Origin: Flammulina velutipes
Taxonomy: Eukaryota; Basidiomycota; Agaricomycetes; Agaricales; Physalacriaceae
Assembly (NCBI GenBank): GCA_011800155.1
Contig: CM022376.1
Location: forward strand, 1 to 64,000
Direction of reading: 5' to 3'
DNA length: 64,000 nucleotides
Each line of letters begins with the position of its first letter. Positions within the stretch are counted from its first letter, which is position 1. Both the position numbers and the translations under genes were made by a program. Shown here one piece after another: positions 446 through 26,150 of the stretch. Under the pieces are notes generated by a model. The model made no database searches, was not told the origin of the DNA, and saw nothing but the letters and a program-made list of their open reading frames with translations.

Positions 446-472
446 TCGTCCCCCCGTAAGCCGGGAGGACAA
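446..472 (-). promoter_or_regulatory. leader hairpin, class III (orphan copy 1)
   Basis: On the plus strand the outer arms are GTCC/GGAC, followed by an unpaired C/A position, the inner stem CCC/GGG and the loop GTAAGCC. The loop is the same as in the copies at 508, 2,343 and 2,473. Here the innermost pair is a full C-G, whereas the other three copies have a C/A on this strand (a U.G wobble in minus-strand RNA). Confidence 0.55.
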
Positions 473-507
473 GTCGATGCAGGATGGTAGAGAGCATACC
501 CTACGCA

Positions 508-540
508 GAGTCGTCCCCCCGTAAGCCAGGAGGACGATTC
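508..540 (-). promoter_or_regulatory. leader hairpin, class III (orphan copy 2)
   Basis: Outer stem of about nine pairs (GAGTCGTCC against GGACGATTC, one wobble), then an unpaired C/A position, a CCC/AGG inner stem and loop GTAAGCC. It is followed at 563-570 by GATGGTGG. No downstream gene body remains on the telomere side. Confidence 0.6.
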
Positions 541-959
541 AATGCGGGGGTCGATTGTTGCTGATGGTGGTTCGTGTCAGACCACGTTTCGGAATATTCC
601 GTATTCGGACTTGACTGTTTTCAGCAAGTTCATTGTTTACGTTATTGAAAATACTATTCGTTACGGAGGATAATAGAATTTGTTGCCTCAGGCGCTCCTA
701 GTTATCCAAAGGCGCGCCGACTTGCGAAATAAAAAGGTGTTGTGATGATATAGACATACACACAGCCAGGCTCGAACGCAAGACTCGGCGATCTCGACAG
801 ACGAGGCTGCCATTGAACCAGCTGGGCATAATCTTAACGCTCGTGTTCGAGTTACAGCAGGTTCTATTGACTACATTTACACGGTGCTAAGATGACTACG
901 TCACGGGTCAGAAAACCCTACTGAATCTATCGTCTCGGGGGCGCCTGAGTTGTTTCATG

Positions 960-2093
960 TTAAGTGGGTGCATTTATAAACGTAGGAAACTTACTCGATG
1001 GAAGAAATTGCGAGATCGCCCAAATAGTGCGTTGCTTGAATACTCTCGAGTCAGCCTTCTGGGCCGTCTGCTTCTTCTCCTTCGGAGCAGGGGCCTTGGT
1101 ATTTGCGTCTGGTACAGCTACCGTTTCCACGCCATTCCGTATTTCACTCGTAACCTGAAGACGTCTGGGTTTGGGGAATGGTCGACGAACAAGAAAGTCG
1201 AGCGGTTTGACGTTGGATTGGCGAGTGATTTTGCGGCGTCTTCGCTTAATGGGAGGTTCTGGAGAAGGAGGAAGGAATCCGGCTGGGAGGGTAAACGTGC
1301 GGTCTAGAATACTCGTCCATTTTCTTTTGGGTGTCTTTTTTTGGTCGTACGGGGGATTCAAGGGTTCAGGTACTACGTCGTATCGAGCGGGAGATTTATT
1401 ATCGGTCGTGATAGACGATGAGGACTGCCGGGACAAGTTGGCTGGGCGTGGCGAGCATAGATTCTGGAACTCGTCGAATCCTTCAGGAATGCAAAAGGTC
1501 ACTGTAGGCGGTGAAGCGAAGGGATATGGCTCGAATGGCGGGAATTGGTTCGGGGAGCAAGGAGGCGAGGAATATGTTACAACGTTTTCTTTCGGGCCTG
1601 GGATGCGATAGAGAGCGGGTTTGGAGGTCGATGCGTATGGCTGGCTGGAACGGATTGCGGAAATTTCAATTAGACATGCTTCCTTGTCTGGTTCGGGGGT
1701 TGGACTTTGACGACGCGTATCTTGCGTATATGCGTGGACTTCTTCTTCTTCTTCTCTTTCCTGGTGAGCCGGACTGCTCGTTGCCTCAACCCAGATGACC
1801 GTCTCAGAATCAGAGGCACCTTTCCTATCGTCAAGGAGGAGCGCAAGAGGCGGTACGGTGTGTCTCCTGCGTAAAATTGGGGTTCGGCGAGGCGTAGCTT
1901 CCACGATCGCCAAATCCTCTTTGGATGCCTTCACCCGGGCTTCTTCAGAGTCTGGTACAGGCGTGTGGAAACCCCTTCTCCTGATGTTGGCCTGCGCAAC
2001 TTCGTCGAGATATGATCTGCCATAGTAAAGAGCGTGAAATTTGGACAACGGCGAAGAAGGCTGCCATGACTCGTAGTCATCGTCTGAGGACAT
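960..2093 (-). CDS. hypothetical disordered basic/acidic protein, 377 aa
   Basis: Single-exon reading frame with ATG at 2,093; TATAATA-like sequence lies near 2,196-2,202. I recognise no domain. The protein begins with an acidic stretch (MSSDDDYES), has an EREEEEE run near residue 113, is rich in Pro and Ser, and carries strongly basic clusters: TPKRKW and IKRRRRKITR in the last third, followed by RRPFPKPRR. The basic clusters resemble nuclear localisation signals, so a nuclear location is an inference. It is the most telomere-proximal complete gene. Two class III hairpins and an initiator-like element lie 250-500 bp upstream of the ATG. The function is unknown; a multi-exon model cannot be excluded. 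Confidence 0.6.
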   Translation of the reverse strand: MSSDDDYESWQPSSPLSKFHALYYGRSYLDEVAQANIRRRGFHTPVPDSEEARVKASKEDLAIVEATPRRTPILRRRHTVPPLALLLDDRKGASDSETVIWVEATSSPAHQEREEEEEVHAYTQDTRRQSPTPEPDKEACLIEISAIRSSQPYASTSKPALYRIPGPKENVVTYSSPPCSPNQFPPFEPYPFASPPTVTFCIPEGFDEFQNLCSPRPANLSRQSSSSITTDNKSPARYDVVPEPLNPPYDQKKTPKRKWTSILDRTFTLPAGFLPPSPEPPIKRRRRKITRQSNVKPLDFLVRRPFPKPRRLQVTSEIRNGVETVAVPDANTKAPAPKEKKQTAQKADSRVFKQRTIWAISQFLPSSKFPTFINAPT

Positions 2094-2342: not shown

Positions 2343-2375
2343 GAGCCGTTCTTCCGTAAGCCAGATGAACGACTC
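2343..2375 (-). promoter_or_regulatory. leader hairpin, class III
   Basis: Outer arms CGTTC/GAACG with a further GAG/CTC closing pair beyond one mismatch, a T/T mismatch, inner stem TCC/AGA and loop GTAAGCC. The inner first pair is T-A here and C-G in the copies at 508 and 2,473, a compensatory change. It lies about 250 bp upstream of the ATG at 2,093. Confidence 0.65.
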
Positions 2376-2472
2376 AAATGAGTGTAGAGGCAACCAAATC
2401 GCCCTAGAGCTTCGTCGTCGTCGTCGTCGTTGGCGGTGCGGACTTGCACGTCTTGATATGCGTCAACTCTCA

Positions 2473-2505
2473 GAATCGTTCTCCCGTAAGCCAGGTGAAC
2501 GATTC
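2473..2505 (-). promoter_or_regulatory. leader hairpin, class III
   Basis: Nine uninterrupted outer pairs (GAATCGTTC against GAACGATTC), a T/T mismatch, inner CCC/AGG and loop GTAAGCC. Compared with the copy at 508-540, outer TCC/GGA is replaced by TTC/GAA, a double compensatory change. GATGGTGG follows at 2,595. Confidence 0.7.
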
Positions 2506-3776: not shown

Positions 3777-3938
3777 CGTCTGGGATCCTCGATCAAGAAT
3801 TATCGACATCGCGTCATCGAAAACATATTACAATTTCCTAATAAAATTACATTGCTGGTTTTTCTAAACATTGTTCGTGTAGACCTGGCGTATTAAAGCG
3901 ACGTAGCGAAGGTATTTATGCAGGCTGCGCTACACGAG

Positions 3939-4643
3939 CTACACGGGCAGCTCGATGGGCTTGAAATTGCCCCAGCTGCTCTCATCTGCCCACGTCCACG
4001 ACTCTTGTCCATACGACCCGTCCGTGTTTGGTTCTTCAGTCCAGCCACGAACTCCTGTCCAGACGATCTCTGGTGCTGTCGGTGCGGTGGCATCTGCCTG
4101 AAGCGTGGATACTGAAGGGATGTCTGCCCAGAATTCAGTGTATGCGTCGTTGTCGTCGTCAAGAGCGACACATGTGTCGTGGGTAGGGGATGATGGATCG
4201 TGGAAGGGGGCAAATTCGTCGCTGTCTGCGGCCTGTTCGACTGCTGGCTGAGGAGACGATAGTTCTGGAAACGGAGAGAACTGAGCCCAAAGGGCGTCGT
4301 CAGAGTCCGTGTCGGGCTGCACTTTTTTGCCTGACGCGTCTGGGTCACTCATAGGCTGGGGAAGAGGGGGCGGGGGCGGGCGACGGGCAAGAAGGCGCGT
4401 CTTCTTGCGCTGGGGCGACTCGACCTCGGTAGAGAAACCGCCTGGAGCATCACTGCGAGTATCGCCTATATTGTTGTCCTCCTGCTCCCGATCCGATATA
4501 GTTCGCTTTGGATGCATGTCGTCTCCTGCTGGTTTGCGGCGGCTGGCGATAATCGAACCAATAACTCGTGAGCCGAGTGATTGGTCGAGTCTCGGATCGT
4601 GTAAATCGCGCGTATGTTCGCTTGTCGACGTCGTCTGCTGCAT
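3939..4643 (-). CDS. small acidic Trp/Phe-rich protein, up to 234 aa
   Basis: ATG at 4,643 lies only 5 bp from the initiator-like element at 4,648-4,655, and a hairpin (4,557-4,585) falls inside the first 30 codons. Initiation at the next ATG (4,517, MHPKRTISDR) is therefore a real alternative and would place the hairpin in the leader. A proline run and a basic patch (PQRKKTRLLARRPPPPP) precede a long acidic region with spaced aromatic residues (DDALWAQFSPF, DEFAPFHDP, DAYTEFWADIP, ESWTWADESSWGNF). The composition resembles the 226-aa neighbour and the 332-aa protein at 11,814. No known domain. The function is unknown; an acidic activator-like or binding-motif role is inference. Confidence 0.6.
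   Translation of the reverse strand: MQQTTSTSEHTRDLHDPRLDQSLGSRVIGSIIASRRKPAGDDMHPKRTISDREQEDNNIGDTRSDAPGGFSTEVESPQRKKTRLLARRPPPPPLPQPMSDPDASGKKVQPDTDSDDALWAQFSPFPELSSPQPAVEQAADSDEFAPFHDPSSPTHDTCVALDDDNDAYTEFWADIPSVSTLQADATAPTAPEIVWTGVRGWTEEPNTDGSYGQESWTWADESSWGNFKPIELPV
4557..4585 (-). promoter_or_regulatory. leader-type hairpin, separate loop class
   Basis: Plus strand: outer arms ACCAAT/ATTGGT, an A/G mismatch, inner arms ACTCG/CGAGT and loop TGAGC. The outer stem, single mismatch and inner stem design matches the other leader hairpins, but the loop differs. It lies 64-91 bp downstream of the initiator-like GATGGTGG (4,648), the same order as elsewhere. Confidence 0.5.
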
Positions 4644-4848
4644 TGGCGATGGTGGTGGTTTGAAGAGAAGAGTGGTGTGCGGTGAATATGACCGTTTTCG
4701 GTACGTTCCCTTTTGGGAGTGTCGATCATCCGCGCTTAGGGGCTAGTCAAGATATGTACATTTAGTAGTTACTATCATACATGGGTAATTCTACCGCTTT
4801 GTGAAATATGCTCGTGTGCAACCTGTTCCCGATTCTCATAAACCTCGC

Positions 4849-7721
4849 CTACTTACGCTCTGGGCCTTGGAGGAGCCAATGCCAGTTGTCTTCCACCTTC
4901 TGGATGCACTGGCGAAGACGTCGTTGGAATTTAATCTCATTCTCCCATTGAGATGGAGTAAACCAGGTGATGACGCCCAATTCCAACTGCGCTAGTCGAC
5001 GTTGATAGTATTCCTCAGCGTCTACACTCCAAAACGGGGTGTAGAGCCCGGAGACGTTTTTGACACCGTGGAGGTAGAACTTGTTCGCTCGTGGCCAGAA
5101 AGAATACTGGCTGAAGTGTGATTCCGCGCTTCTCTCTGCGTTACATTAGTTTGTTAACCCTGTAAGCCAAAATGAATTACTTACGGACAACATTAAAAGC
5201 GCCACACATAATTCCTTCCTCCTCCTGAGATAGGCATATCTGGAAGAATTTCTCGCCAGTGTCGACATGGAACGAGACGTCGTTGTCGTTTGGCTGGATT
5301 GGTGGTCCATCAAGGGTTATATCTCCCATGACGAAACGCCTCGCAACTCTGGCCACAAACCCCCCGTAAATAAGTGCTAGCGCGCCGCGGGGAGTCTCAA
5401 TGAAGCTGGACACTTTGTCCTCGTAGTCCTTCCAATCCACCTTTTCTGGTTTATACTGTTTCGGCCTCTTCCCAATTGCTGTTCGATAGGTGATATCCCT
5501 TCTCGGGCGCTTCGTTCTTGGCATGCGTCGAACTGGCACTGTCGCAGCTGTGGAGCGTTTCTTTTCCTCTTTCACATCTGGACGCCTGTCGAGAACAAAC
5601 CACGAAAATGTTATCCCGACCATCGCAAGATTTCGTGCGAGATCAGCTATGCTGGGGCCCCATTGATCTCCATGCTGGAGGGCTGCAACGAGACCCAGGG
5701 TGCTATCCAGCGCAATTTCGAACGGAACCTCATAGGGCTGGGAGTATTTTGGCCGAAGAAGCGCCCAAGAGCGTAGCGAGCCTTTGACGAATCGATACTC
5801 GAAAACGTTGCTGTAACGAAAGTCGACGTACGCCAGCATCATATCAGCAGCTTCGTGGTGGAAAAATGCGGAAAGTCGTTGTTTGAAGCCATCGGAAATG
5901 AGACTGGCGTCGTGTAGATAGTTGGTGTATCCAAGAGCGGTCAGAATACGATGGATGGGGATGCATTGTCCGCGAGGATTAGGGAGAATCAAGGTTGTGT
6001 CGTCAAAGTACCCATAGAACATGAGCGCGATTTGACGTAAGGCGTCCTCGTCAAGGCTGGTGACGGGTACATGTGCCTCCGTGGTGAGGCCCAAGTTGAC
6101 GTCGTCTAAGAAGTGTATGGCTTCCTTCCCCAGAGACTCGTTGTTGCCTACGTCTGGAAGAAGACCTTGGCCTCCTTCCAGCCCCATGTCCGACTCAAAG
6201 ACAGGTCGCGGATCTTCGCCTAGAGCGCGGTCAAGATCTTGAGGAGTGGGATTGGTGGGAAGCGGATGGAAGGGGTTATAGATGTCCCATTCGTCTCTAA
6301 ATCCATCGTAGTGGACGAATTTTCGAGGCCAGTGGGTACATTCTTGGTACTGCGCCTTAGTTAGACGCCTACGGGTGTAGCATCCGGTGTGGTACTCGTA
6401 ATCCCACTCGTAAACTTTGACGTTGCTACGCTTCGGCGGATACCCTTTCTCCTGAGCGTTCTTCTCTTTCTGCATCCTGATACCTCGTTGTTTTGTCGTC
6501 TCGTCTTTCTCCCATTGTAAAGCTTGATGCTTCCTCCTCATCTTGAATTCCTCGAAAGTTTCCCCTGGTTTCTGCCCGCTCTTTTCCTCGGGAATATGGT
6601 CCTGTAACTGTGGTGTCGCTGGGCGTTCGGGTTGTTGGATGGCAGTAGAGCCCACGGATGCACTTGACGCAGAATTGGAAACGCCCAGGTCCAATCGTAT
6701 AGCGTGGGTACCAGTGGGAGGGTGGACAGAGGATGAATCGGATTCGTTAATTTGTGCGCGGTGCCATTTCCGGAGTGTCAAGAGGTCCTGTAAGCTTGCA
6801 TAGAAATGGCGGTAAGGCCCGTGGATTCTGGGTTCGTACGAGACGACCTGCTGGATGTCTCCCCATGCGACATGTACGGTCACGTCAAAGTGCGCCATAA
6901 TGAAGTCCAGCATCGGTAACGATTCCGGTGCCCAGGTCTGTGCTTCTGCTACGCCGCCAACCATCCTGACTTCCTCGTCGCAGACGTCGCTATATTGTAT
7001 ACGGGATAGCCAGGAAGGGTGCAGGTCTGTTGTCTGTGTCACCATCTCCACCCAATCCCAGTCTGCGAGCACTTCCGCCCGTGCGATATGATATGTTACG
7101 AGCGCAATTAGCGGCAAGAACGCGTTCCTTGCCAGCAGCAATTGTTCCTGCGCCACGTCGAAGCTTGCGAAATGCCCGGTGTAGCAATATTGGCTTGGCC
7201 ATGGCCATGTACATAGAGACGCCGGTGGATCTCCATCTAACCCTTTCAACAAATCCTCCAGCTTTTTCCAGAGGGTCCGTAGATTGGCCTCCAGTGTCTG
7301 CCAGGAGTATTTTTTTCCGTAGTCTAGTTGCCAGACCACACGGGAAGAGCAGTCCGACCTCGACTTGTAGACGCGTATTCCTTCCACGGGGAATTTGCCT
7401 GGCGAGTGGTTGAGCGTTTGGAACGGTTGTTGGTCGAAATTAGGTTGGAAAGGGACGAGGAAAAGGTAGAAATTCGAGGGGTTGATGACACGCTGCATCT
7501 GTAGAGATTTCAGGATGGTATTGTCGTGTAGATCCAGCACGCCAGAGACCGGGATTGCGGAGATTACATCGTCGCGTGGTGAGATGAAGACATCTCGGTT
7601 TACAATGGAGACGGAGTGTATATCGTGTTCGATTGTGCGCTATCAGAAGGCGTTAGTGAAATCTTTGACCGAAATTAAGATGATCTACCTTGACGAGCTT
7701 CCAGCTTTGGATGGAGGACAT
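4849..7721 (-). CDS. large subtelomeric family protein, 924 aa (intact member)
   Basis: I infer three exons: 7,689-7,721 (MSSIQSWKLVK), 5,185-7,639 and 4,849-5,135. The introns are 49 bp each with GT..AG ends, and the joined frame is exactly 925 codons including the stop. A GTAAGT at the stop codon could instead be a further donor site. No known domain is recognised. Landmarks: WPWPSQY near residue 157, a long helical N-terminal block with DFIMAHFDVTVHVAWGD, a Pro/Ser linker, PGETFEEFKMRR near 369 starting a charged helix, KVYEW near 420 and a C-terminal GIMCGAF block. These landmarks and both intron positions recur in the gene at 22,170-25,056, so this is a real family and not a chance frame. 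Function unknown; no catalytic motif is seen. Confidence 0.82.
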
Positions 7722-7764: not shown

Positions 7765-7799
7765 TTTATGAATTCCTCAAAACCGAGAGATTCTATAAA
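7765..7799 (-). promoter_or_regulatory. leader hairpin, class II
   Basis: Plus strand: loop AAAACC, inner stem CTC/GAG, an imperfect pair of positions, then GAAT/ATTC-type pairs and, beyond one bulged T, TTTAT/ATAAA. The loop and inner stem are identical to those at 7,826 and 8,849, while the outer stems are different. Confidence 0.6.
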
Positions 7800-7825: not shown

Positions 7826-7849
7826 TGTCACCTCAAAACCGAGGTGACA
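7826..7849 (-). promoter_or_regulatory. leader hairpin, class II
   Basis: Plus strand: outer TGTCA/TGACA, a paired C-G middle position, inner CTC/GAG and loop AAAACC. Nine uninterrupted pairs. Same 5+1+3+6+3+1+5 geometry as the class I hairpins. It lies 105 bp upstream of the ATG at 7,721. Confidence 0.7.
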
Positions 7850-8848: not shown

Positions 8849-8876
8849 GTGAATCTCTCAAAACCGAGATATTCAC
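8849..8876 (-). promoter_or_regulatory. leader hairpin, class II
   Basis: Plus strand: outer GTGAAT/ATTCAC, one C/T mismatch, then TCTC/GAGA and loop AAAACC. Loop as at 7,765 and 7,826 with an unrelated outer stem. Followed by an initiator-like GATCGTGGTGG at 8,903. Confidence 0.68.
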
Positions 8877-11522: not shown

Positions 11523-11546
11523 CTCACGCCCGGAGACGGGGGTGAG
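11523..11546 (-). promoter_or_regulatory. leader hairpin, class I
   Basis: Gene sense (minus): outer CTCAC/GTGAG, C/C mismatch, inner CCC/GGG, loop GTCTCC. 24 nt, 82 bp upstream of the ATG at 11,441. Confidence 0.7.
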
Positions 11547-11730: not shown

Positions 11731-11754
11731 CTCACCCCCGTGTCCGGGCTTGAG
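11731..11754 (+). promoter_or_regulatory. leader hairpin, class I
   Basis: Plus sense: outer CTCA/TGAG plus one C/T mismatch, C/C mismatch, inner CCC/GGG, loop GTGTCC. 60 bp upstream of the ATG at 11,814; this is the only clear copy serving a complete plus-strand gene. Confidence 0.7.
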
Positions 11755-11813: not shown

Positions 11814-12812
11814 ATGCCAGTCGCGTCCGTCACGGCGCTCTCGAAAAAGCGCAGTGCGCCCTGCTCTCCTGGCCCAAGTGTTCGCCCCTCGACGCCCAAG
11901 AAGCTTTGCCTGGAGCCTCCCCCGCTTCCCGTGTCTCCCTCATCGCAGGCTATGACATGCGAGGAGAGCCTTGCCATGTTATACGACTACAGTCTGGAAC
12001 TGACGGCTTATTGGGTCGCTAAAGGGGATCTGACTACGCCCACCGTGGAGGAAATTGAAAAGTCCTGGGAAGAGTTGTGTCCCTGCTCGCCTGTGCCTGT
12101 CCAGACTATGGAAGAGTTCTGGGCAGAGGTTGAGGCCAACCCCGCAACTAACCCCGCAGTTGCTGGTCCTGTTTGGGAAGGCGATGCTGCTCATGTCGCT
12201 GCTGCTCGGGCTAAGCTTGCCTTAAACCCTCCCGTCGCTATTCCTGCGCCCGCCAGCGACGACTTATTCAGCGACGACGCTACCTGGGATAACGATGCAC
12301 TATGGGATAGCGTCGCTCCCATCAAGCAGGCTAGTCCTGCTCGTATCCCCGCTGCCGAAAAGGGAAAGCAGAAAGCAGCGTCCAAGCCCTATCCTCCCGC
12401 CATCATTCCTGCGCCCGCCAGCGACGACTTGTTCAGCGACGACGCTACCTGGAATAACGATGCCCTATGGAATAGCGTCGCTCCCATCAAGCAGGCTAGT
12501 CCTGCTCGTATCCCCACTGCTGACAAGGGAAAGCAGAAAGCAGCGTCCAAACCCTATCCTCCGGCCATCATCGCTGCCAATGGCCCCACTACCATTGTCC
12601 CTCCCGTCGCTGTTCCTGCTCCCGCCAGCGATGACCTATTCAGCGACGACGCTGCCTGGGATAACGAGGCCCTATGGAATAGCGTCGCTCCCGTCAAGCA
12701 GGCTAGTCCTGCTCGTATCCCCGCTGCCGATAAGGGAAAGCAAAAGGCAGACGACCCATACGATGAGTTCGAGGGCGAGTTCGACGACTACGCCGACTTG
12801 GATGAAGTTTAA
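11814..12812 (+). CDS. acidic-aromatic repeat protein, 332 aa
   Basis: Single-exon frame from ATG at 11,814, the only clear plus-strand gene in the cluster. An N-terminal basic SP-rich segment (ALSKKRSAPCSPGPS) is followed by an acidic helical stretch (EEIEKSWEELCP, MEEFWAEVEAN). Three tandem repeats of about 50 residues follow, each with the core PAPASDDLFSDDATW then ALWxSVAP(I/V)KQASPARIP and KGKQKA. The C-terminus is acidic (FEGEFDDYADLDEV). Repeats 1 and 2 are almost identical at the DNA level, indicating recent duplication. DDLFSDD-type motifs resemble acidic activation or adaptor-binding motifs; no DNA-binding or enzymatic domain is present. Function unknown. Confidence 0.75.
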   Translation: MPVASVTALSKKRSAPCSPGPSVRPSTPKKLCLEPPPLPVSPSSQAMTCEESLAMLYDYSLELTAYWVAKGDLTTPTVEEIEKSWEELCPCSPVPVQTMEEFWAEVEANPATNPAVAGPVWEGDAAHVAAARAKLALNPPVAIPAPASDDLFSDDATWDNDALWDSVAPIKQASPARIPAAEKGKQKAASKPYPPAIIPAPASDDLFSDDATWNNDALWNSVAPIKQASPARIPTADKGKQKAASKPYPPAIIAANGPTTIVPPVAVPAPASDDLFSDDAAWDNEALWNSVAPVKQASPARIPAADKGKQKADDPYDEFEGEFDDYADLDEV

Positions 12813-14490: not shown

Positions 14491-16237
14491 TTAATATAAA
14501 TAATTTAGAGGTTCCCCAATGAACGCCCCGTTTTCCCAATAGTGTATAAAGGCCATGGCGATGATATGGATGCGCCCAAATTCTCCGTCCCCCGACTCAC
14601 AGTACTTGCCAAAGTCTGCGGGTCCAGTGAACACTTCGTCTGGAAGGCCCAGTGGTCGGAGAACGTACTGTCGACCCTCCTCAGTGGCGTGCGCTAACCA
14701 AGCGGCATATTCGATGACAAGACGCATGTGGCTGGCGTCGCATGGACCGTAGGGGTCCCCATCCTCGTGCCCCGAATAGTTGAACGGGAGGCCACAACGG
14801 AAGCAGATTATTAAAGGTTCAAAATGCATGCTCCCCGTAAAACGACGAAACACCTGATCATTCTGCTGCATCGGACATACCTCTCCCCGAGAATGCCCAA
14901 TATATTCTGCATCCCCAGACGAAAAGGTGCACAATGGGCACGCTTCTGCGTTTACGACGTCGCGCACGGCTCTGATAAATTTGTCCACCAACTGAAAGTG
15001 TCCAACTCCTGGTGTGCGAAGGATATTGGTACAGAAAATTTTGCCCAGGAAATGCGTCGGATGTGCCAGCTTTCGCAGGTCTTGGGCTGTCGGGAGGGGA
15101 GCAGGGAGAGGGCGACTTTGAGAAGAACCCGAACTCGGCGAGCTAGAATCAGAATTTGCCTGCGTACGCAGCATCGCAGGAGTTCTTCGCCCAGGTAGGG
15201 GGTTTGCTTGGGGATTGGATGCCCGACTCGGAGTCAGTGTACCAGTCAACCGAGATTGTCCAGGTTGACGGTATATCGCAGGAGTCCTACGAGCAGATCC
15301 CTGTTGGGAACGCATCGCAAGTTGGGTAGAGGAGGAGGTGCTGGTTTGGCGGGTAGAGGACGATGTTCGATTCGCCGAAGCAGGGGTTACTGGTTGTCGG
15401 ACTTCGCCCGCTTTGCGGGACGGGAAGACGCCCGGCTTGTACACAACACCTGCAACGTGTTGGACACCTCCGATATTGGCGTGGTTGGGCAATGGCTCGC
15501 CAAAAGAGTTGTAAACGGGCTTTATAGGAGCCTTGAATTTCATGGGAGGCTTGCGTACGACGTTCTCTTTCGAGGCAAACTTGTTCGGCCAGCTATCCGG
15601 CAGGGCGGGAGGTTGAATATCGGGGAGTTCGATGGAGGAATGCACTGTATGGAGTTAGTCCAGCCGACGTGAGAGATTGTAAAGACTTACGACGTGTACC
15701 ATTCACCCGTTGGCTAAGTTCGCCTCTGCGGCTCGTTCCTGCAGTCTTGGGCGTGTCCTGACACGGAGCATTGACATCCAAAGAAGGTACACACAAGGCA
15801 CTGCGAGCCAGAGCTTGCAGCAGAGCAGACTTGCGGACTGGATCCCGCCTGGAAGCTGTGATCTCCGCCTCCATGGGGAGCTGCTTCCTAGCTTTCTTGC
15901 GCGCCTCCTTGCGCTGCTCGCGCTCCTGGCGAAATGTTGCCAGTTCCTGTTTCCACTCGTCCGAAGACTTGCGACCCCGCTCGTCAGGGCAAGGAGTATT
16001 CGGCACAGAATCATATCGAGGGCGTTTGGATACCGCTCGCATGGTATCTGGTCCTCGTTTGGTAGGACGGATGGGTTGGGTGAGGTTACCAGCATCGCGC
16101 CGTTGACTTGCTTGGGACGAATCGCTGCGCCCGTCGCATTCTGTCCTGGCGTCGTAGACACCTTCTCCTACGCAATGACGACCGGACACGGTGGTCAAAG
16201 CGATGGGAGAGGCAGACGGACGCGACTGAGTCGACAT
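14491..16237 (-). CDS. helicase-neighbour protein with C-terminal Cys module, 566 aa
   Basis: Two exons, 15,691-16,237 and 14,491-15,644, with a 46-bp intron (GTAAGT, ACTAAC, ACAG); the joined frame is exactly 567 codons. Residues 1-410 are disordered, basic and Ser/Thr/Pro rich, with a Lys/Arg/Glu helix near 95-115. The C-terminal 150 residues hold a probable zinc module: CPLC at 418-421, C439, CFRCGLPF from 463 and C484. The same CxxC then CxxCxxPF then C order occurs in the last exon of the helicase at 16,362-21,793, immediately upstream on the same strand. Common origin by duplication of the helicase tail is inferred. A class I hairpin lies within the first codons, so the start could be further downstream. 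A CATATAAG TATA-like box lies at 16,290-16,297. Function unknown. Confidence 0.75.
16176..16197 (-). promoter_or_regulatory. leader-type hairpin, class I
   Basis: Gene sense: outer TGAC/GTCA, C/C mismatch, inner ACC/GGT, loop GTGTCC. The inner ACC/GGT pairs replace CCC/GGG and TCC/GGA of other copies, which is compensatory. It lies just inside the ATG chosen for the 566-aa gene and 50-80 bp from the initiator-like GATGGTGG at 16,248-16,255. Confidence 0.68.
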
Positions 16238-16247
16238 GCGGGGCGGA

Positions 16248-16361: not shown

Positions 16362-19300
16362 CTATCGCTGAGGGTATATCGTATCGAATGCGAGAATGAA
16401 TCTAAACACATTGGGTATTTGAGAAGCGTTCTGGCAAGGCGTAGAGAGCCATTTGCGAAAGCCAGCGATCGAGTCCCACATGTTATCCGCATCTCCTAGT
16501 TCCTGGGCGAGTACGTAGTGAAATGATGTTGTCGAGTCGCCAGCACCGTAGATGAGCGCAACGATATGTGGTAGGATGATATTCTCGACGCATCGTTCCT
16601 TGAAGACCGCCGGCCCTCGCTGATACCGAGGATGGTTGCAAGGTTCGTCGAAGGGAACCCAGCACTTGTAACAGAAGGGCCAATGAACGTAGGTCGGGAA
16701 TTTTAGTTCGCGTAGTGCCTTTTGGGTGGGGGGGACGCGAGGATGAGTCGTGTGCTCACTCATTTCGTGCGGAGGAGGCGTCTGAAAGTTAGGATTGGTT
16801 CGCGAGGCCATCCAGCAAACAGCGCATGCATGTTTCCCAACCTCCTGGATAATGTCTTCGATACGTTGAATCTCCCTAGTTCCTGCCTTTGTTTGAGCCA
16901 ATAACCTCTCTCCGTGTGTTTCAATCGTTAGTGGTTGGTTTCCTACGATTGCGATGTTCGTACTCATGGGTTGGACCATTCGAATCGACGTTTCCTGAAA
17001 TGTAGTTAGTAGCAATAATGTGATCGTATAACGTTACGTACCCCCGTTCGGCGTTCACAGTTATCGCAGAAGGATACCGATGGTATGGCGCCACATGAGT
17101 GCTTTTCTGTGTCAAAGACGCCCAAATGGAGACGGCGACACCTGTCCGTCTTGATATACCCCGCAGCTTGTTCCCTCGCCATGTATTTATCTTCCTCCGA
17201 GGCAGGAAACGCGTATCGTTTGAAGTCTAGGACGAATGACACTGAGGGACATCCATTGCGTCCCATGCGACCTGACTCTTGAACGAATCGTAGGAGCGAA
17301 GGCATGCCTACGTGGATGCAGAATCGGACTCGTGGATGATCAATACCCAACCCGAATGCTAGCGTACACACCATCCATTGATGTTCCTTTGCTTCAGAGT
17401 GTTGCCAGACCTGGTGCGACGACTCCTTCAACATCTTGTTTCTTGCTTCGCTGATGGGATCGAGCTTTGCGTGGTACTTGAGTGTGCCGTATTGCGTCGC
17501 TATAGCATCAACCTCTGCAACTGTCTGGCAATAGATGAGCCCCTTCTCCCCCTTTGCCAACGCATTTTCTCTCATAATCTCGCCTGCGCGAGCACTTCCT
17601 GCACTGGGATCTGTCACCGTCTCGACACGATACGATATATTCGGCCTGTATGTGGGCAGACGGAAGACACGTAGCATCCGCGGATCAATTTCCAACATCT
17701 CGCAGATCCGAATTTCCGTTGCGGGGAGGACAGTAGCTGACAAGAAGAGGAAGGGTTTCTTCAGGCGAGTAAGATGAGGGAAGAATTCATATGTTCCGCG
17801 GTATGATGATATCGGTATTTCGTGTGCTTCATCTATGGCGATAGCAAGTATCCTGTCGCCTAGACATTCGAGGTAGGCGCGGAATTCTGTGGAGTTGACG
17901 AGATGAGCTGATATGACGACCATGGAACAATTCGGATCGATGCCTCGCTCAAATTTCTCCCCCCAATTACAAACGTTGACGCCGTTCGCTAGTACTCGTT
18001 GGTAGAGGTCTTGAGTAGTTGCTACAAGTGGGGTAATGGCAATAAGAACTTTTGCTGGACATATTTTGGCGCCTGTGACAAGTATCGAGGTCTTTCCGGA
18101 ACCGGTTGGACATGTCAGAAGGATATGGTAGGTCATCCCGTCGACGAGCAACTGCAATACTTCCCCCTGTGCTACGGAATTCCACTGCAGATCAGGAAGT
18201 TCAGGATGGAGTCCTTGCAGCTTTTTCAGGAGGTTGGGGTGGACCTCGACAGGCGGAAAGGCAACATCTTCCAATTTTCCTCCTTCCTTTTCTCTTTCAT
18301 AGGCCATCCACGACTCGGCAAGCTCCCTCATGACCTGTCGTGCTTCCTTTCGTAGGCCCTGTCCGAACGTGACATAAGCTTCGTTCATCGAGTGCTTGAA
18401 CACCGGTAGCACTTGCTCTACTAACACGAGCATTGAGGCGTTCGGATTGACCTGAATAGAATGTTAGATTATGATTTTAGATATATCTAGCAAACTCACG
18501 TCACTGGATTTGGCAATGTCAGTGCTGATATGTGTCGGTGCAAGATCCAGGACACAATGCCAACGCAGACTGACGCGCTGGTGCATTAGAATGACAGTAT
18601 GCGCGAGATCATTGAGAGCTCCATAGTCGATAGAATAGTGTTTCTGCGCGATGGATGTCGAGTGGTTCGTTTGCGAGTCAATGTCGGAGATATGCCTCGA
18701 TTCATCATCTCCATCTCCGTAGTTCTTTCCTGTCGTGACCTTGAGCACTGAATCCATTAGTTGCCTCATATCACGATGCCCCATCTTCAGCTTCAGCCGA
18801 GTGAGACTGTGCAGAGACAACGCCTCGCCCAATGCCTTGCTGTTCATCACCCTTCCTGAAGCTACATACATGTATGACAAGTAGTTCTCCGCGTCGTCGC
18901 TCTCTGGCCTGGCCATATGCATTAAATGCGCTGCACATGGATAAACGACGCTCCAGAGGAAGACGAGCAGACGGCCTAATGCGGAAGGCGGGCATCGCAA
19001 TATTGCAGAAGCGTGCCCACTCCTTCCTTGCGTTTTTGAATAACTGGTGACGACACCCAGCATCCCGTTAAAGAAGAGAACGTGCCGATTTCCGAGACTA
19101 TTGTTGGCGAATCGTAAACCTTCACACTCAGTCCCACGGGGAGTGCCTCCACTGGATGTTGTCATCAAAAAGAATACGAGTCGGACAATTTCGTCCAGCT
19201 CTTGGATCCACGTCTGGATTTTATCTGTGCAGATTCATGAGTTACTTTGCAGCATGGAATGAAGGTTATTTATTACCTGGCTTCGGATAAATACCTCCAT

Positions 19301-21793
19301 CTTTGAGAAAGAAAAAGTCTTGCGTGTTGGTAAAGTGGTTTAGGAGGATGAGTTCGTATTGCTTTAATTCGTTCTTGGGATCCTCTATAAATGAGTATCT
19401 GTTCTTCCTTTCTCGCGGATCGTCTCTGAACCACTGGTCCGACTTTTCTGGGGAGCTGTCTATCCGACGTGTGATGAAGCTCAAAACGTCGGTCATATCG
19501 AATCCTCGTAGAAGCTTTTTTAACATCGCCTCCAATTCGGCTATCCCGTCTTTGACTGAGTGCAACAAACGCGATAATGGGATGGGGTTGCCATCAATAC
19601 TAACAATGGTTTCACCATAATTCCACCAGAGGCGCGGGATACCCGGTTGTAATAGCGAGAGGGACGAGAAGTATTTCATTCTTTGTCGTAGTACTGTAAA
19701 TAGCCCCGGCCTGCCATCTATGATAAATGCTTTGACCTCGCACTCGTATGCTTCGAAATCCTGATCATCATACTTGCCCCGTAGAAGGATTACTTGTTCC
19801 ACCGTGGTCGCACGGAAACACCATTGCAGCTTGGATATATCCGGTGGGATCCTCTGAACCGACGAGAAGTGCCCTTCATCGTCTATGATGTGCGACGCGA
19901 GCAAGAAAAGGTTGAAGAGGTCGAGCTTTTCGTTGCGTTTGGCCTCAGGGCTCGTCTTTTGAAGAATACACCAAACGGTCTTGTGGATGGCATCGAGAAT
20001 TAATTCCTTTTCGATGTCTTCCCCCGATATCAGTGCGAGCAGGCGGTCGAGAAGATCGGAAAGGTCATCGTGCAGTGGGACATGGAACCCCCTGATAGGC
20101 GATGTACAATGACGAAGTAGGAAGCAGACAAAGTACGACATATAGTTGCCGTCCTGGTCGATCGTTTCCTTTTCCTGGGGACGATGAAAGGGAATGTTCT
20201 TCATTTCTGGTCTGTAATGTTTGTTAGTGTGGAGTTTGTGCAATATTTTGATGAACTTGCCCTTGCGAGTGAATTGCCCGTAACGTCAGCGTCGATAACT
20301 GTGAGATTGTCCCTGCTATACCGTGATAGTACTCCCGAAAGAGTGGAGGCAGCTTGAACAAGTCGCCTTCCTGGGCAATGGGCGCAACGGCACTTGCTCG
20401 AAGTTCCCCAATACTGACGTCCGCCACTAGTTCGAGCCATTTGCCTTGCGCAAGAAGCGGATCCAGGTATCGTACATTCTCCGCACTCTGGAACTGCATG
20501 GACACGACGCCGAGTCCTCTTGCTTTCGCTTGGGCAACTACAAATGCAAGAGTGTCCGATGGTTCCCCTGCTGCAGAAAGAACCTCGACATATCCTTCCT
20601 CCTTGCCATCCAGCCGGACAACTCGATGAATGGGCACATCACGTTCCTTGGGACGCTGGGTGGCTTCTGGGTGCTTTTTAACAAAATGTTTGTCTATCCC
20701 GCGCTTCGATAATGCAACCGTTTGACAACCTGGAATCATGCATCGTATTCCATCGAGGTATATACGTACACCATCTATACGTGGGATTGGTCCTCTCGGA
20801 AAGCGAACTGGCCTGTCTCCACCCAACACGGCGATGTGTTGTTCCATCTCCTCTTTTGGGGGGAGCCTTGCCCCGTGTTTTGTCCGGTGGTTGTACTGCG
20901 ACTTGTGCTTGTCGTGGCAGTGCTTGTGGCACAAGACGTGACTGACGATGATGCCACAGCTTGTGCAAACGATGCGTCGGTGATGACGCTCAACATATAA
21001 GCCGTGTTTGAGAAGGAATACGCGGGACGCCTCGAGTGATTCCTTATCCTCCTCACCAGTATCCATGCGCGTGTCTTCCTCGAAGAATTCTTCCTCGGTT
21101 TCGTCTGAGTCCGTTTCAACTGCGAGGTCTTGTTCCACACCCTCCGATGCGGGAAGAGGACTGGGTTCTTCGGTATTCCCATCGGGAGCGTCCTCTGGGA
21201 ATCCGAAATCTGGGGAAACGAAGGCTGGGAGAGGGTCGTCTGCGGGTTCCTGCTCGATATCCGAATCTGCGCCGTCTCCTTCCCCTTCTTCGTCGTCCAT
21301 GTCCTCTCCTTCCCCATCCATATTGACGCTTGCATCAGCTGTAAGTCCAGGACCCCTGATTTGGGGGGGAGGGAATGGTGGAGGCAACCGTGACTGATCC
21401 CCCGGATAATCGCTGCGCTGTTTATCAGGGTGTGGATTATTCGTTGGATGGGTATGGTGACCCAGGAGTTTCTTGAATTGGCCTCGGTGAGATCGCGAAT
21501 GCTCGCTTCGTCCGCACGGACAGTCGTACAGTCCCGTTAGCGAATTGCGTAGTATATATTGTGTTTGTCCTTGGTAGGGTTAGTATATTGCGGTTTGCTG
21601 CGTGTGCGCTCACCTTCTTTGGACACAAACGCTACGGGCGCTGGTTGACGGTGACATTCCTTGTCGTGAGTTGCCTTGTGATGCGCATACCAGCCTGTGT
21701 AACAATACGGTTGCAAGCAGCTGTTCAATCGTCAGATAAAGATTGCGCGTTGGTGTTTTCGACTTACGGCTGGACTTTGTTGGGTGGAGGCAT
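16362..21793 (-). CDS. telomere-linked RecQ-family helicase with OrsD-like N-terminus, about 1,700 aa
   Basis: I infer seven exons: 21,768-21,793, 21,614-21,720, about 20,285-21,569, 19,277-20,211, 18,500-19,224, 17,042-18,451 and 16,362-16,994. Six introns of 44-73 bp keep one frame; only the donor of the third (near 20,284) is uncertain. Start MPPPNKVQ. A Cys/His finger spans exons 1-2 (CLQPYC..HHKATHDKECH) and another opens exon 3 (CPCGRSEH..H). An acidic stretch follows, then two fingers typical of OrsD-like regions (CTSCG.. near 246, CMIPGC..H..H near 321-344). The RecQ core carries CPTGSGKT near 1,140, DEAH near 1,233, SAT, AFGLGID and QESGRMGRNG near 1,417 (RecQ usually has GRAGRDG). 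The tail has CAVC and CYKCWVPFDEPC. Known for the family: subtelomeric helicase copies in many fungi, presumed ATP-dependent 3'-5' unwinding. A role in telomere recombination is inference. Confidence 0.92.
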
Positions 21794-22169
21794 TTTTTTT
21801 GAACGATAGCACTACCAGAACCCTGTCCGATATGCAAGTTCCACTTGCTCAAGTCGCACTGGGCGACCGCGCTCAGCGCTCAAATAAATAAACAGTTGTC
21901 CAGTCGTAGACCCAAAGCCAAATCACGTCCAGACACGGAGGTGAAATGAGCAGTGGCTACTGATGGTGGTAAGGAAGAGTGCTCTAGAGGACCGGGGTTG
22001 ACGCCTGTAATTCACGTCACGTGCAGAATTAATGTCCGCGCGAACCTCAAAATATATTATCGCGTACGCTACCTATCTACAACGAATACGTCTACATGAG
22101 GGGATTGATGGAGTGCAAAACTACGAGTCAAAGTGTCCAAGAAACTGTCTACGAATGTTCTGCGTGTAG
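21794..22169. other. leader of helicase and 3' flank of the family copy
   Basis: No gene. It contains the class I hairpin at 21,923-21,944 and the initiator-like element GATGGTGGTAAGGAAGAG from 21,962. The remaining 200 bp are AT-rich and unremarkable. Confidence 0.6.
21923..21944 (-). promoter_or_regulatory. leader hairpin, class I (helicase gene)
   Basis: Gene sense: outer TCAC/GTGA, C/C mismatch, inner TCC/GGA, loop GTGTCT. Compared with the copy at 25,120 the inner stem changes CCC/GGG to TCC/GGA on both sides. 130 bp upstream of the helicase ATG. Confidence 0.7.
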
Positions 22170-25056
22170 TCAGTCCTGATCCCCAAATTCAAGCCTTTCG
22201 TCCAGCACGGCACCCCAATCCTTCGCCAACTCGTTGATCACCTTGCCCGGTAACGACGTGAACCGCCACTTGGTGTTCCACTGTTTGCGCATCAACAGCT
22301 TGTATTGACCACGCTCGTACGTCTCCCGAACCTCCCGGTAGTTCTTCTCAGCAAGAGGTGTCCACTGCGGAAGAGCAAGCGTCGTGCTCCAAAAGACTGG
22401 GGTCGTGGGCCACCACGAAGTGTATTTGAATTGGTCTTTGTACCCGCCTTTATTGCGGTTAGCTTTTTGTGAGATCTTCTATTTGGAAACACTTACTGTG
22501 AACCTTGTACGTTCCACACATCAGGCCATCCTCGTCCTCGGTTAGTTGGATCACATGAAGGTGCTCGCCGTTCTCCGTCTCGACGATCCGGCTGCCAATT
22601 TTTGCTCCATCAGGTGGGCCTTGAATCAGGACATCCGCCGCAATGTAACGACGAGCTTCGCGAGCAACAACTCCTCCTTGGCAAAGCGCGAGTGGACCCC
22701 GGGGAGAGTGAGCGAACGACGAGACCCTATTGTTGTAGTCAGACCAGTCATACTCGTCGGGGAGGTAATCGTTCGGTCGTTCGCCGAGGAACTTGACGTT
22801 CGGACGGGTAAAGACCTTCCTTGTGTCGGCATTCGCCCTCATAACCCAATTAAATCGTACGCCTTTGGATCCAAAGTCAGCAGCCAGCTCCCCAAGTGAG
22901 GTCGCCTCTGTTTGTTCGCACGAGTATAGAGCGCCCCATATTTGGTAGAGTGAGATCTCGTACGCTGTTTCGGATGAGGGGACATTGTAGGGTCTCGCCA
23001 AAAGCATTCGTTTTCCATCCTTCAAGGTGGCCACACGATAGGAGAAATGTCGCGGATTAGTGAGCTGAGCGTACAAGGGGAACGTCACTGTTTGCGATCT
23101 GGTGAAGAATGCTAGTAGGCGGAGCGCCAACTGTTGGGAAAGATCGGGGATCTCATCGACACCCAGAATTAGAGGTAACTGTCCCTCCTCCAATTGGATA
23201 TCGACCGTGTGGCTATCAGTTGCTGGGGGCGGAGGAGGGATGACAAACGTGGGATCATCCACGTAGCCATACATTGCATACGCGATTTTGAGGGCCTCAG
23301 CCTGGCTAATGATGCAGCTGGGAACTGCGGAGCTTTCCAGCATTTGGGGCATAGAAAGAGTATCCAAGAATCGAGTGGCTTTCCCAGCCGCTGAATCGTC
23401 GGGGGGTGGTGGAGGGAGTATCTCGTCTATCGTGCCGGACAATTCTTGGCCCTCTTCCTCGTCGTCGTCTTCGTCCTCGTACAAGCTGGTGATGTGAGTG
23501 GGATCCTTGATAAAATGAGGGACATATATGTCCCAGTCATTCGAATACTCGTCATAGTAGACAAAGTCCGCCCGCAACTCCCAAACCTCCCCAAATAGAG
23601 ACTTGGGAACGTATGTTCGTGTGACGTTCCCCTTCCCGTCCGATCACCATTCATAGACCTTCTGCCCACCCCGCTTGCTAGGCTGCCCGTTCTTCAGCGC
23701 ATACTCCTTCCGACTTGCTCGAGACGTTCGCAATGTCTTGAGCGCCGCTGGATGCAACTTCCGTTCCTCTTCCCTGTCAATACGAGCGTTTCTTTCCGCC
23801 CTCCTCTGCATAAATTGTTCAAAGGTCTCTCCGGGGTGTTGGTTGGCACCTAGCTCCACGACGTGCTCATCCTGTGGTTGTTGCTCCGCGGCTGGGCCTT
23901 TGTCCTTCTGTACTGCTGGGGGGAGATTGACCCAAGTCGCCGTGGGCGCAGTAACTTCCCTCGACGGGGCCTGACCGGATCCTGGTATTATGATCCTATA
24001 TCGTTTGTCGACTGGGGGTCGCCCAGGCGCGCCCTGCTCGTTGAACCAGGCCTTGATCTTTCGATGCGCTTGTTGCTGAACGTAGAACCGAGTTGGAACC
24101 TCCTGCTTCAACTGGTATGTGGCATGAGCCCGCTTGCGACCGGACTCGATGATTCTGTCAGCGTAGACGTCCAGGTCGCGAACGTCCCCCCAGCGGACGT
24201 GGATAGTTAGCGAGAAATGGTGTTCCAGAAAGTCTAGCAGCCTCATGTACTGTGGCGCCCAGACGGAGGCATCGACAGCTCCACCCATACGGGGAGAGTA
24301 CCTGTTACAGTAGACAGAAAGCGCGACTCTCTCAACCCACACAGGGTGCAAGCCCTTTGAATCTTTTATGCGCTGAATCCAATCCCATTTGACGTACTTC
24401 TCTGCGCGGCGTACATAGAAGGCGACGAGTCCCAGCAGCGGGAGGAAAGCCAGTCGTGCGTGTCTCGCAGCTCCAGTGGCGTCGTTGTAGCTTTGGAATT
24501 TCCGGCCATAACCATATTGGCTGGGCCAGGGCCATGGCTTCATTGTGGTGGGTGCCTCTCCCATTTCTCCCCGCGTCATTTCCTCCAAGCCCATCCAGAG
24601 AGACCGTAGATTGTTCTCCATTATGTTCCATTCTTCAGCTATAGTTTGCCTGAGGAACCATTGATTACGCTCCGCCCCGTTCTTGTCCTTGATTCTGCGC
24701 TTGTGAATGGGCAGTGGTTCAGCAAGACAACTGAACGGCTGCTCGTGACTGAAACTATGAAGGTGGGGTATAAGGAGGAGGTAGAAGTATTGGGGGCTGA
24801 TGAAGCAGAATTCGGTTATCGTATGGAGCGCTGCGAATTTGTCGTTGTACTGCAGCGCAGGCGAGGGTGCTGCAGAGATGATCTCGCGCGAAGGAGAGAC
24901 GTATAATTCCCTGTCGATCAGCGTGATTGCTTGTTCACCTGTAATGTAGGTTGCCTTTAAATTTTGTTAGAGTGGATGTAGGGGGAAGGCGACTGAAGTC
25001 CGTACGACAGTGGGCCCCTGGCTACGAGCAGAAGCAGACGACGTGTTGGCAGACAT
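22170..25056 (-). pseudogene. second member of the 924-aa family, interrupted by in-frame TGA
   Basis: Three exons are inferred: 25,006-25,056 (MSANTSSASARSQGPTV), 22,497-24,954 and 22,170-22,447, with 51- and 49-bp introns at the same places as in the gene at 4,849-7,721. The total is 929 codons, close to the 925 of the paralogue. Shared landmarks: WPWPSQYGYG, LDFLEHHFSLTIHVRWGD, PGETFEQFMQRR, KVYEW, GLMCGTY and an aromatic C-terminal block. Codon 454, directly after KVYEW, is TGA (23,644-23,646). Both flanking frames are otherwise open and in register, so a single nonsense change is the simplest reading. Skipping it as an intron fails because the only plausible GT..AG pair (46 bp) breaks the frame. 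Recent loss, read-through or a sequencing error remain possible. Function unknown. Confidence 0.8.
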
Positions 25057-25119
25057 TGTAGACGGAGAACGTGAGAAGGCCTTTGGCGCTGAGGTCTCGT
25101 TGTCGAGCACTGTGCAGAA

Positions 25120-25143
25120 CTCACGCCCAGACACGGGGGTGAG
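25120..25143 (-). promoter_or_regulatory. leader hairpin, class I
   Basis: Gene sense: outer CTCAC/GTGAG, C/C mismatch, inner CCC/GGG, loop GTGTCT. 64 bp upstream of the ATG at 25,056. An initiator-like AATGGTGG is at 25,204-25,211. Confidence 0.7.
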
Positions 25144-26150
25144 AACGGTATCAGCGGACGCGTGGACACTGCAGATGGACGCGATACGCGTCGCGCGATT
25201 GCCAATGGTGGTGGAAAACGGAACGGTTTGGCTGTGTTTGGTTGGAATGGAACAGAGCACGTTCTCCCGGCGAATGCCGCTTGACCGGAACATCGGCAAA
25301 ACCCGGCCCCTGCTGCTTTCAACCACCACCATGGCGTCCATTCTGACTCCCGTTCCCGGGAGTCAGTTTGTTTGTCCTGTCGGAGCGCCGTTGTATTGGA
25401 TTTTGTATGAGAGGGTGACTGTTTGGGATGTTGTTGGGCCTGATGTGGGTGGTGCGCCACACATGCGCCACACATGCGCGCATCGTTGTCGCTCGGGGAG
25501 TTTTGGTGCCAAGCATTAGCGGGAGGGGCCCCGTTTTAGGTGAGTGTACTGCGCACGTTGTGGGGACCACAGATAACGATTTAGTGAAGGCGAGGCCGAG
25601 CGACATCCTATACCGAACTGTGGCGCTGAAAAAGTACGTCTTATACCTACTGAGACGAACCACTGACCTGCGCCGTGGGTAAATAAGGTCTTTTATTGCT
25701 GTCTTTCGTTCGCTCGCCAAGGCTCGCGACGACGCCTGTCTTGTCCCTAGAACCGCACTGCTGCCCCAATCCTTGGGTCTGTCGCTCTGGAATGTGTGCC
25801 GCGAGGACATGGCAGAACCAGCGAAAACCATCTTCAGCACCCTACATTCGATTTTGGGCCCTTGCCGCTTTCGATTTGGACCCATGGAGCCGGTCTGCGG
25901 CCAGAAGTTTATTGTGGCGCAGCGTAAACGCGTCCCTACCGGTCGTGGTGTGCGCGCGCACTGTCGGATGACTGTACTATACATTCTGTCGGTCCGTAGT
26001 ACATACTAGGAGGTATTCCGGGACCACCTGAGGAGTTTTTGGTACCAGTGTCCAACGTCCTCCCCCTCCCCCCCGCTGCAAGCACCGTCGGTGCCCTAGT
26101 CCTAGTAACGCATAGTAGAACCGAACACTCACTAGGAAAATGACTAATTG
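25144..26150. other. gene-poor transition with a possible truncated plus-strand gene start
   Basis: A plus-strand CCACCACCATGG at about 25,322-25,333 followed by the hairpin at 25,343-25,366 mirrors the leader arrangement in the plus orientation, but the frame from ATG 25,332 closes after 62 codons. Short plus-strand frames further on (for example near 25,600-25,680, ending VLYLLRRTTDLRRG, and 25,770-26,009, MGLSLWNVCREDMAEP) may be exons of a decayed gene. I cannot link them with confidence. A long minus-strand frame (25,319-25,984) has no convincing protein character. Confidence 0.35.
25343..25366 (+). promoter_or_regulatory. leader-type hairpin, class I geometry, plus orientation
   Basis: Outer CTGAC/GTCAG, a paired T-A at the middle position, inner CCC/GGG, loop GTTCCC: nine uninterrupted pairs in the same 24-nt geometry as class I. 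It sits just inside an ATG (25,332) preceded by CCACCACC. Confidence 0.6.

What the first reader, a model, noticed from the sequence alone, without database searches (positions are those of the whole stretch)
446..25366. A family of leader hairpins with conserved loops and covarying stems upstream of most subtelomeric genes
Thirteen short hairpins lie about 50-500 bp from gene starts of unrelated products. All share one design: variable outer stem, one free position, 3-bp inner stem, class-specific loop. Class I (11,523; 11,731; 16,176; 21,923; 25,120; variant 25,343) has loop GTGTCY and a C/C mismatch. Class II (7,765; 7,826; 8,849) has AAAACC (GGTTTT in gene sense). Class III (446; 508; 2,343; 2,473) has GTAAGCC. 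Inner stems in class I read CCC/GGG, TCC/GGA and ACC/GGT, and outer stems CTCAC/GTGAG, TCAC/GTGA and TGAC/GTCA: both arms change together while the loop stays. That is the signature of a selected structure. It may be an RNA element binding a loop-specific protein, or a set of inverted-repeat DNA sites. I know of no described family like this.
Basis: partly seen in the sequence, partly recalled or inferred. Interest (0 to 1): 0.88.

Follow-up and report, generated by a model that had tools for sequence, protein, structure and literature searches.

The report
Element-specific RNA hairpins before transposon genes
In a mushroom-type fungus, blocks of neighbouring genes, at least one of them holding a jumping-gene enzyme, carry just ahead of their start codons a small hairpin whose loop letters are shared within the block and differ between blocks while the stem letters change freely, which looks like an RNA recognition tag of a sort I found no description of.

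Summary
A hairpin before a paralogous gene on another contig revealed a fourth class: loop GATAAC, three unrelated stems. An unbiased scan for loops shared by hairpins with dissimilar stems picks out class II and this class as its only three-member clusters. Swapping stem arms within classes destroys pairing (6 of 200,000 re-pairings match the real ones). Class I and III patterns hit nowhere else in the 38-Mb genome; the class II core occurs at five other places, all with weaker flanking stems. The set is not really subtelomeric: each local gene block has its own loop. The contig-13 block holds a Plavaka transposase gene, and its hairpins precede the transposase, the 820-aa gene and a third gene. 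Twelve hairpins lie 39-249 nt before a plausible start codon, mostly behind a pyrimidine tract with ACCACCAYCA, so probably in 5' leaders. G.U outnumbers A.C 12 to 3 in sense-strand stems, pointing to RNA. Best reading: element-specific 5'-leader RNA tags read by a loop-binding protein not yet identified. Transcription and binding are untested; more distant members of the 820-aa gene family showed no such classes.

The parts
444..475 (-). class III hairpin, loop GGCTTAC; no clear ORF behind it
508..540 (-). class III hairpin, loop GGCTTAC; motif ACCACCATCA 21 nt upstream; no clear ORF behind it
2343..2375 (-). class III hairpin, 249 nt before the ATG of ORF 963-2093
2473..2505 (-). class III hairpin (tandem copy of 2343); motif ACCACCATCA 88 nt upstream
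4557..4585 (-). further hairpin, not in the finding (ACCAATcACTCG-GCTCA-CGAGTtATTGGT), 39 nt before ATG of MHPKRTISD..; motif about 61 nt upstream
7765..7799 (-). class II hairpin, loop GGTTTT, 43 nt before MSSIQSWKLVK (assumed first exon of the 820-aa gene)
7826..7849 (-). class II hairpin, loop GGTTTT; motif 10 nt upstream
8849..8876 (-). class II hairpin, loop GGTTTT, 164 nt before a 211-aa ORF (MARPSEIF..); motif 28 nt upstream
11523..11546 (-). class I hairpin, loop GTCTCC, 81 nt before a 271-aa ORF; divergent with 11731
11731..11754 (+). class I hairpin, loop GTGTCC, 59 nt before a 332-aa ORF (11814-12812); lacks the motif at one mismatch
16176..16197 (-). class I hairpin, loop GTGTCC, 133 nt before MRAVSKRPRYDSV.. 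(two earlier ATGs at 36 and 80 nt)
21923..21944 (-). class I hairpin, loop GTGTCT, 129 nt before MPPPNKVQP and a likely GTAAGT splice donor; ORFs with OrsD and helicase domains follow
25120..25143 (-). class I hairpin, loop GTGTCT, 63 nt before MSANTSSASARS.. (assumed first exon of the 820-family paralogue)
25343..25366 (+). class I variant, loop GTTCCC; no clear ORF behind it
5180..7639 (-). ORF of the 820-aa family, no Pfam match, paralogues elsewhere in the genome
22462..24966 (-). second 820-family copy, frame interrupted by one TGA
17009..18463 (-). helicase-domain ORF of block C
20227..21579 (-). OrsD-domain ORF of block C

Best explanation
Each hairpin is an RNA stem-loop in the 5' leader of the mRNA of the gene behind it. 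Genes of one mobile-element-like block carry the same loop; a related block uses another. A protein, most likely encoded by the element, reads the loop and the helix shape but not the stem letters, so the element can tell its own mRNAs from others and control their translation, stability or export together. Shown: conserved loops with interchangeable paired stems, local loop classes, place before plausible start codons, sense-strand G.U bias, and a fourth class in a block with a Plavaka transposase gene. Inferred: that the leader is transcribed, that blocks A-C are mobile elements, that a protein binds the loop, which protein, and what the binding does.
For: Arm-swap test 6 of 200,000; covariation in class I; three-member shared hexaloops at 1 of 200 and 0 of 400 in Markov controls; class II core has strong outer stems only in the window; fourth class GATAAC with unrelated stems, cognate stem scores 15.0-17.6 against 0-4.9 swapped; Plavaka ORFs in that block; 12 hairpins 39-249 nt before a plausible start, the first ATG in 10 of 12 (5 of these 10 assume an intron), and a divergent pair with a gene on either side both in the window and in L046; 9 of 10 motif loci in 0.2-26 kb lie 10-88 nt before listed hairpins and the tenth led to a further one; G.U 12, A.C 3.
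Against: No transcript data. Class II and III contribute little to the arm-swap test on their own (2 of 6, 2 of 24). Seven of the 12 G.U come from class III, whose copies are related. The motif was read off these sequences and also occurs elsewhere without strong hairpins, and 3 of its 6 loci in L046 are not at hairpins. Other 820-family loci (C4:3.64 Mb, C5/C12/C3, C13:1.49 Mb, C4:1.48 Mb) show no loop class in the stretches held. Block C's 820-family copy is interrupted. Element ends were not found.
Confidence: 0.58

Rival explanations
1. DNA-level control sites: hairpins extruded from, or inverted repeats in, the promoters, bound by an element-encoded DNA-binding protein, much as plant VANDAL elements use VANC proteins with element-specific DNA motifs.
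For: Element-specific short motifs in noncoding DNA beside genes are known for VANDAL/VANC (passages); two hairpins of the window form divergent promoter-like pairs; the 11508-11557/11720-11769 stretch is itself an imperfect inverted repeat.
Against: Stems change on both sides while pairing stays, which a duplex-binding protein would not need; G.U exceeds A.C on the sense strand; the hairpins lie between the putative start-site motif and the ATG.
Confidence: 0.25
2. The hairpins are remnants of short inserted repeats (miniature elements) that landed before genes and then decayed.
For: Classes II, III and the C5 element show tandem copies.
Against: Flanks are not homologous outside the tandem copies (one search finds 31-nt class I and 25-nt class II repeats only); decay would break the stems, not re-pair them; loops, not ends, are conserved.
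Confidence: 0.1
3. Class I is a coding motif: all six members can be read in one frame as a peptide like LTPVSGRE.
For: Common frame in the six members.
Against: In 11523 and 21923 that frame has no ATG between the upstream stop and the motif; neighbouring residues are not alike; paired changes give E, H, D or Q, not synonymous codons; it would not explain classes II-IV.
Confidence: 0.02

Closest known systems
Iron-responsive element and similar 5'-UTR protein-binding hairpins (features recalled, not from a call)
   Same: Short hairpin in the leader of several mRNAs, conserved loop, variable lower stem, unpaired position beneath a short upper stem
   Different: Loops here are GTGTCY, GGTTTT, GGCTTAC, GATAAC, not CAGUGN; 3-bp upper stem; loop changes from block to block; found in element-like gene blocks
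VANC targets of Arabidopsis VANDAL transposons (PMC5735166, passages)
   Same: Short motif repeated in the noncoding parts of an element, different between related elements, thought to let an element act on itself only
   Different: VANC binds a short double-stranded DNA motif; here the paired stem is kept while its letters change
Plavaka DNA transposons (PMC12730594, passages; Pfam PF18759)
   Same: Block D holds Plavaka transposase ORFs
   Different: No 'hairpin' occurs in the main text of that paper; the ends of block D were not reached, so element structure is untested
Helitron 3'-terminal hairpin (recalled)
   Same: A hairpin belonging to a eukaryotic transposon
   Different: One hairpin at the element's 3' end, against one or two before each gene here

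Membership tests
Iron-responsive element | Hexaloop CAGUGN (recalled) | tested here: not met
   Loops GTGTCY/GTCTCC/GTTCCC, GGTTTT, GGCTTAC, GATAAC; no Rfam match at gathering for the window or at E 0.5 for window 200-26300 and L046
Iron-responsive element | Lies in an mRNA untranslated region | tested here: inconclusive
   Place before plausible start codons; no transcript data
Smaug/Vts1 recognition element | Loop of the CNGG type (recalled) | tested here: not met
   None of the loops reads CNGG
VANC target system of VANDAL elements | Short element-specific motif repeated in noncoding parts of one element | tested here: met
   One loop class per block; class I and III patterns nowhere else in the genome
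VANC target system of VANDAL elements | Motif is read as double-stranded DNA | tested here: inconclusive
   Re-paired stems and G.U bias argue against it; no binding data
VANC target system of VANDAL elements | Cognate VANC protein encoded by the element | not tested
   No comparison with VANC sequences was made
Plavaka transposon (block D, L046) | Plavaka transposase domain PF18759 | tested here: met
   L046:1555-2109(-) 7.4e-9, above cut-off; L046:2144-3547(-) 8e-5, below cut-off
Plavaka transposon (block D, L046) | Terminal inverted repeats and target-site duplication | not tested
Helitron | A single hairpin close to the 3' end of the element (recalled) | tested here: not met
   Several hairpins, placed before genes

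The most novel reading that the evidence does not exclude
Fungal DNA transposons label the mRNA of each of their genes with an element-specific hairpin loop, an RNA 'password' read by the element's own protein (candidate: the 820-aa family) that changes as elements diverge, so that a multi-gene element regulates only itself.
Probability: 0.35. Interest if true: 0.92.

Novelty: new variant of a known kind. Interest (0 to 1): 0.77.

Why it matters
If true, this is a cis-regulatory RNA class that ordinary family searches would miss: the loop changes with each element and the stem letters are free, so neither sequence similarity nor one covariance model would gather it. A screen for structured RNAs in fungi held only Ascomycota genomes and steered away from transposable elements (PMC8216456, passages). 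It would be RNA-level self-recognition by a transposon, with a rule (one loop per element, any paired stem) simple enough to test and to use for finding multi-gene elements and their regulators.

Tried and rejected
Coding explanation of class I: rejected. Rfam: no match. Loop-sharing hairpins in other loci (C3 at 10.4-11.0 kb, C7, C1) have alike flanks (a tandem repeat region, a long identical direct repeat, an inverted pair with similar flanks): not the same thing. A weak class I model hit at L055:9767 (12.1 bits, E 1.9) lies inside an open frame; the other three hits of that search (13.0 bits, E 1.1) are one site in the three copies of the C5-type element: dropped. The tandem 63-nt repeats (92% alike) before the 770-aa gene of the C5/C12/C3 element are near-identical copies, so they say nothing on covariation: not counted. 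The hairpin 5021-5045 has a loop close to class II but no motif and no clear start: not counted. Model R1 and the pair count used a structure one column off and are not used. The model of the 820-aa protein is poor (mean pLDDT 45.3); Foldseek gave 0 matches at E 0.001 or better, and there was no Pfam match in 7 of 7 members and no PDB sequence match. ACCACCAYCA is not specific to hairpin genes: with a tract-plus-motif rule, 25 hits in other loci had a hairpin above the null's 95% point in 1 of 25, against 5 of 14 in window and L046; two of the 11 window hits (region positions 23220 and 3412, add 190 for window positions) show only null-level hairpins. A laxer loop scan adds some two-member clusters in the window, C4, C5, C3 and one three-member cluster in CGT-rich repeats of the window, of no clear kind. 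Paper searches 74 (start-site signals) gave listings only and nothing used.
Full report
What was checked. The window is the telomeric end of contig 9 of a 38.1-Mb, 23-contig genome. Relatives of its 820-aa protein in the protein database are from Mycena, Rickenella and Favolaschia. All 13 hairpins are at the stated places. In gene sense the loops are GTGTCY (class I), GGTTTT (II) and GGCTTAC (III).

Structure. Class I on six rows: pairs at columns 8-12/27-31 and 14-16/23-25, and two more beyond a TT/TT internal loop. 93.3% of 60 cells pair; covariation score 0.387 against a shuffled mean of 0.138, reached by 0 of 500 shuffles; three pairs change on both sides (43 of 500 shuffles do as well) and there are seven further pair types (31 of 500); slid registers pair in at most 42% of cells. 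Related sequences can beat shuffles, so I used a second test: left and right arms were re-dealt within each class and scored by one rule. Cognate against the mean of permutations: class I 82.7 against 57.8 (6 of 720 as high, with ties from alike arms), II 48.3 against 37.1 (2 of 6), III 73.5 against 64.6 (2 of 24), IV 48.6 against 20.0 (1 of 6); together 6 of 200,000.

Chance and locality. A scan for any hexaloop used by two or more hairpins with dissimilar stems returned, at three members, AAAACC/GGTTTT in the window and GATAAC in L046; the window also gave one two-member cluster, and seven other regions of about 137 kb together, including window 26-64 kb, gave none. Class I is split by its variable loop and is not seen as one cluster there; an earlier scan that allowed a mismatch returned classes I, II and III and nothing else in the window. 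With second-order Markov sequences three members appeared in 1 of 200 (window) and 0 of 400 (L046). The class I pattern with up to 2 mismatches and the class III pattern with up to 3 hit only the window in the whole genome, controls 0; as these patterns were made from the copies, that shows locality. The class II core is a fairer control: eight places, stem scores 15.3, 19.0 and 16.1 for the three in the window and 6.8, 11.1, 7.6, 5.6 and 7.6 for the five others.

A fourth class. The window ORF 5180-7639(-) (820 aa stop to stop, no Pfam match) has a paralogue at 22.5-24.9 kb and others on contigs 13, 4, 5, 12 and 3. A hairpin before the contig-13 paralogue suggested the loop GATAAC; a search of L046 (C13:391001-400000) with that loop, beside five other loop strings, gave three hairpins with unrelated stems, at 3793(-), 3929(+) and 7168(+), and the unbiased scan found the same three. 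They precede a gene opening MGKDDIDRMPCSMCGKLVD.., with ORFs behind it that match Plavaka transposase (8e-5, below the curated cut-off, and 7.4e-9, above it); the 820-aa paralogue; and a basic, proline-rich ORF MGKRPIVRSPPES. A hairpin with the loop GATTAT lies beside 7168. The feature is therefore not tied to the telomere. By position the window splits into blocks with one loop each: A 0.4-2.5 kb (III), B about 5-9 kb (II), C 10.6-25.4 kb (I). That A-C are separate mobile elements is inference; no ends were found (one search shows no clear terminal repeats).

Position. Taking the hairpin nearest each gene, 12 precede a plausible start codon by 39-249 nt: window 11523 (81), 11731 (59), 16176 (133), 21923 (129), 25120 (63), 7765 (43), 8849 (164), 4557 (39), 2343 (249); L046 3793 (61), 3929 (85), 7168 (66). 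In 10 of 12 that is the first ATG; 16176 has two earlier ones and 7168 one with a 3-codon ORF. Five of the ten (21923, 25120, 7765, 3793, 3929) assume an intron after a short first exon; the exons after 25120 (MSANTSSASARS) and L046 3929 (MSSYTSSSARPR) look alike by eye. 25343 and 446/508 have no clear ORF. Orientation: classes II and III sit on one strand with their genes, so they are not informative; class I follows the gene in 5 of 5 with a gene, on both strands, and class IV in 3 of 3 once its sense is chosen. Upstream, on the same strand, lies a pyrimidine tract with ACCACCAYCA. In 0.2-26 kb the motif (one mismatch) has 10 distinct loci: nine are 10-88 nt before listed hairpins, and the tenth led to the hairpin at 4557-4585; 11731 lacks it at that stringency, one further window hit is at 63050, and in L046 three of six loci are at hairpins. 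The motif was read off these sequences and also occurs in other loci, where 1 of 25 hits is followed by a strong hairpin. I take it for a general start-site signal of this fungus, which would put the hairpins in the leader; that is inference.

RNA or DNA. With G.T and A.C scored alike, the sense-strand stems of 18 hairpins (the 13 listed, 4557, three of class IV and the GATTAT variant) hold 12 G.T and 3 A.C. RNA folding of the sense strand predicts that direction. Class III supplies 7 of the 12, so it is support, not proof.

What reads the loops. By tblastn at E 1e-3 with ORFs of 120 aa or more, the window blocks and L046 share only the 820-aa gene, and blocks B, C and D each have their own loop, so this protein is my first candidate; the interrupted copy in block C is a caution. 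Its model was poor (mean pLDDT 45.3) and no profile, sequence or fold match was found. More distant 820-family loci show no loop class in the stretches held.

Known systems. As a device it resembles the iron-responsive element (recalled) and, in element specificity, the VANC targets of VANDAL transposons (passages of PMC5735166). It fails the loop test for the first; re-paired stems argue against plain DNA recognition for the second. Paper searches (listings with starts of abstracts) showed no description of such hairpins; PMC12730594 on Plavaka and related transposons has no 'hairpin' in its main text (passages); the structured-RNA screen PMC8216456 was limited to Ascomycota and avoided transposable elements (passages). 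The library holds open-licence papers only.

Verdict. Real and selected, organised by local gene block, most likely RNA in 5' leaders; reader and mode of action unknown, with a testable candidate.

Noticed in passing
window 28000-60000: Strongly skewed stretch (GC skew about -0.17 throughout) with repeat units at 48031 and 56400, about 8.4 kb apart; no Rfam match in the window at gathering, so no sign of rDNA.
   Followed up: no
G000 C5:3026722-3043976 (L047, L043, L048), also C12 and C3: An element of about 17 kb in near-identical copies, with a PF24764 integrase-domain ORF, a 770-aa member of the 820-aa family and two tandem hairpin-bearing repeats before it.
   Followed up: partly
L046 about 7218-7246: A further hairpin with loop GATTAT next to the class IV hairpin at 7168, as if a tandem pair had diverged.
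   Followed up: partly
window 62293-62333: Perfect 19-bp inverted repeat with a 3-nt loop (CGTTTTGGCTGCGTTTACA), the strongest hairpin of the window.
   Followed up: no
window 963-2093 (-): Residues 316-354 of this ORF match (49-51%) nine places near the ends of contigs 4, 9, 13 and 17, several of them in pairs about 4.1 kb apart.
   Followed up: no
L057 2389-3030 (C3:10.4-11.0 kb): Tandem repeat region built around the palindrome TGCCAGAANNTTTCTGGCA with changing outer stems.
   Followed up: no
window 11814-12812 (+), 3942-4742 (-), L046 7240-7581 (+): Three hairpin-led ORFs with basic, proline-rich starts and acidic D/W stretches (e.g. SDDATWDNDALW), perhaps one fast-changing accessory gene type.
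   Followed up: no
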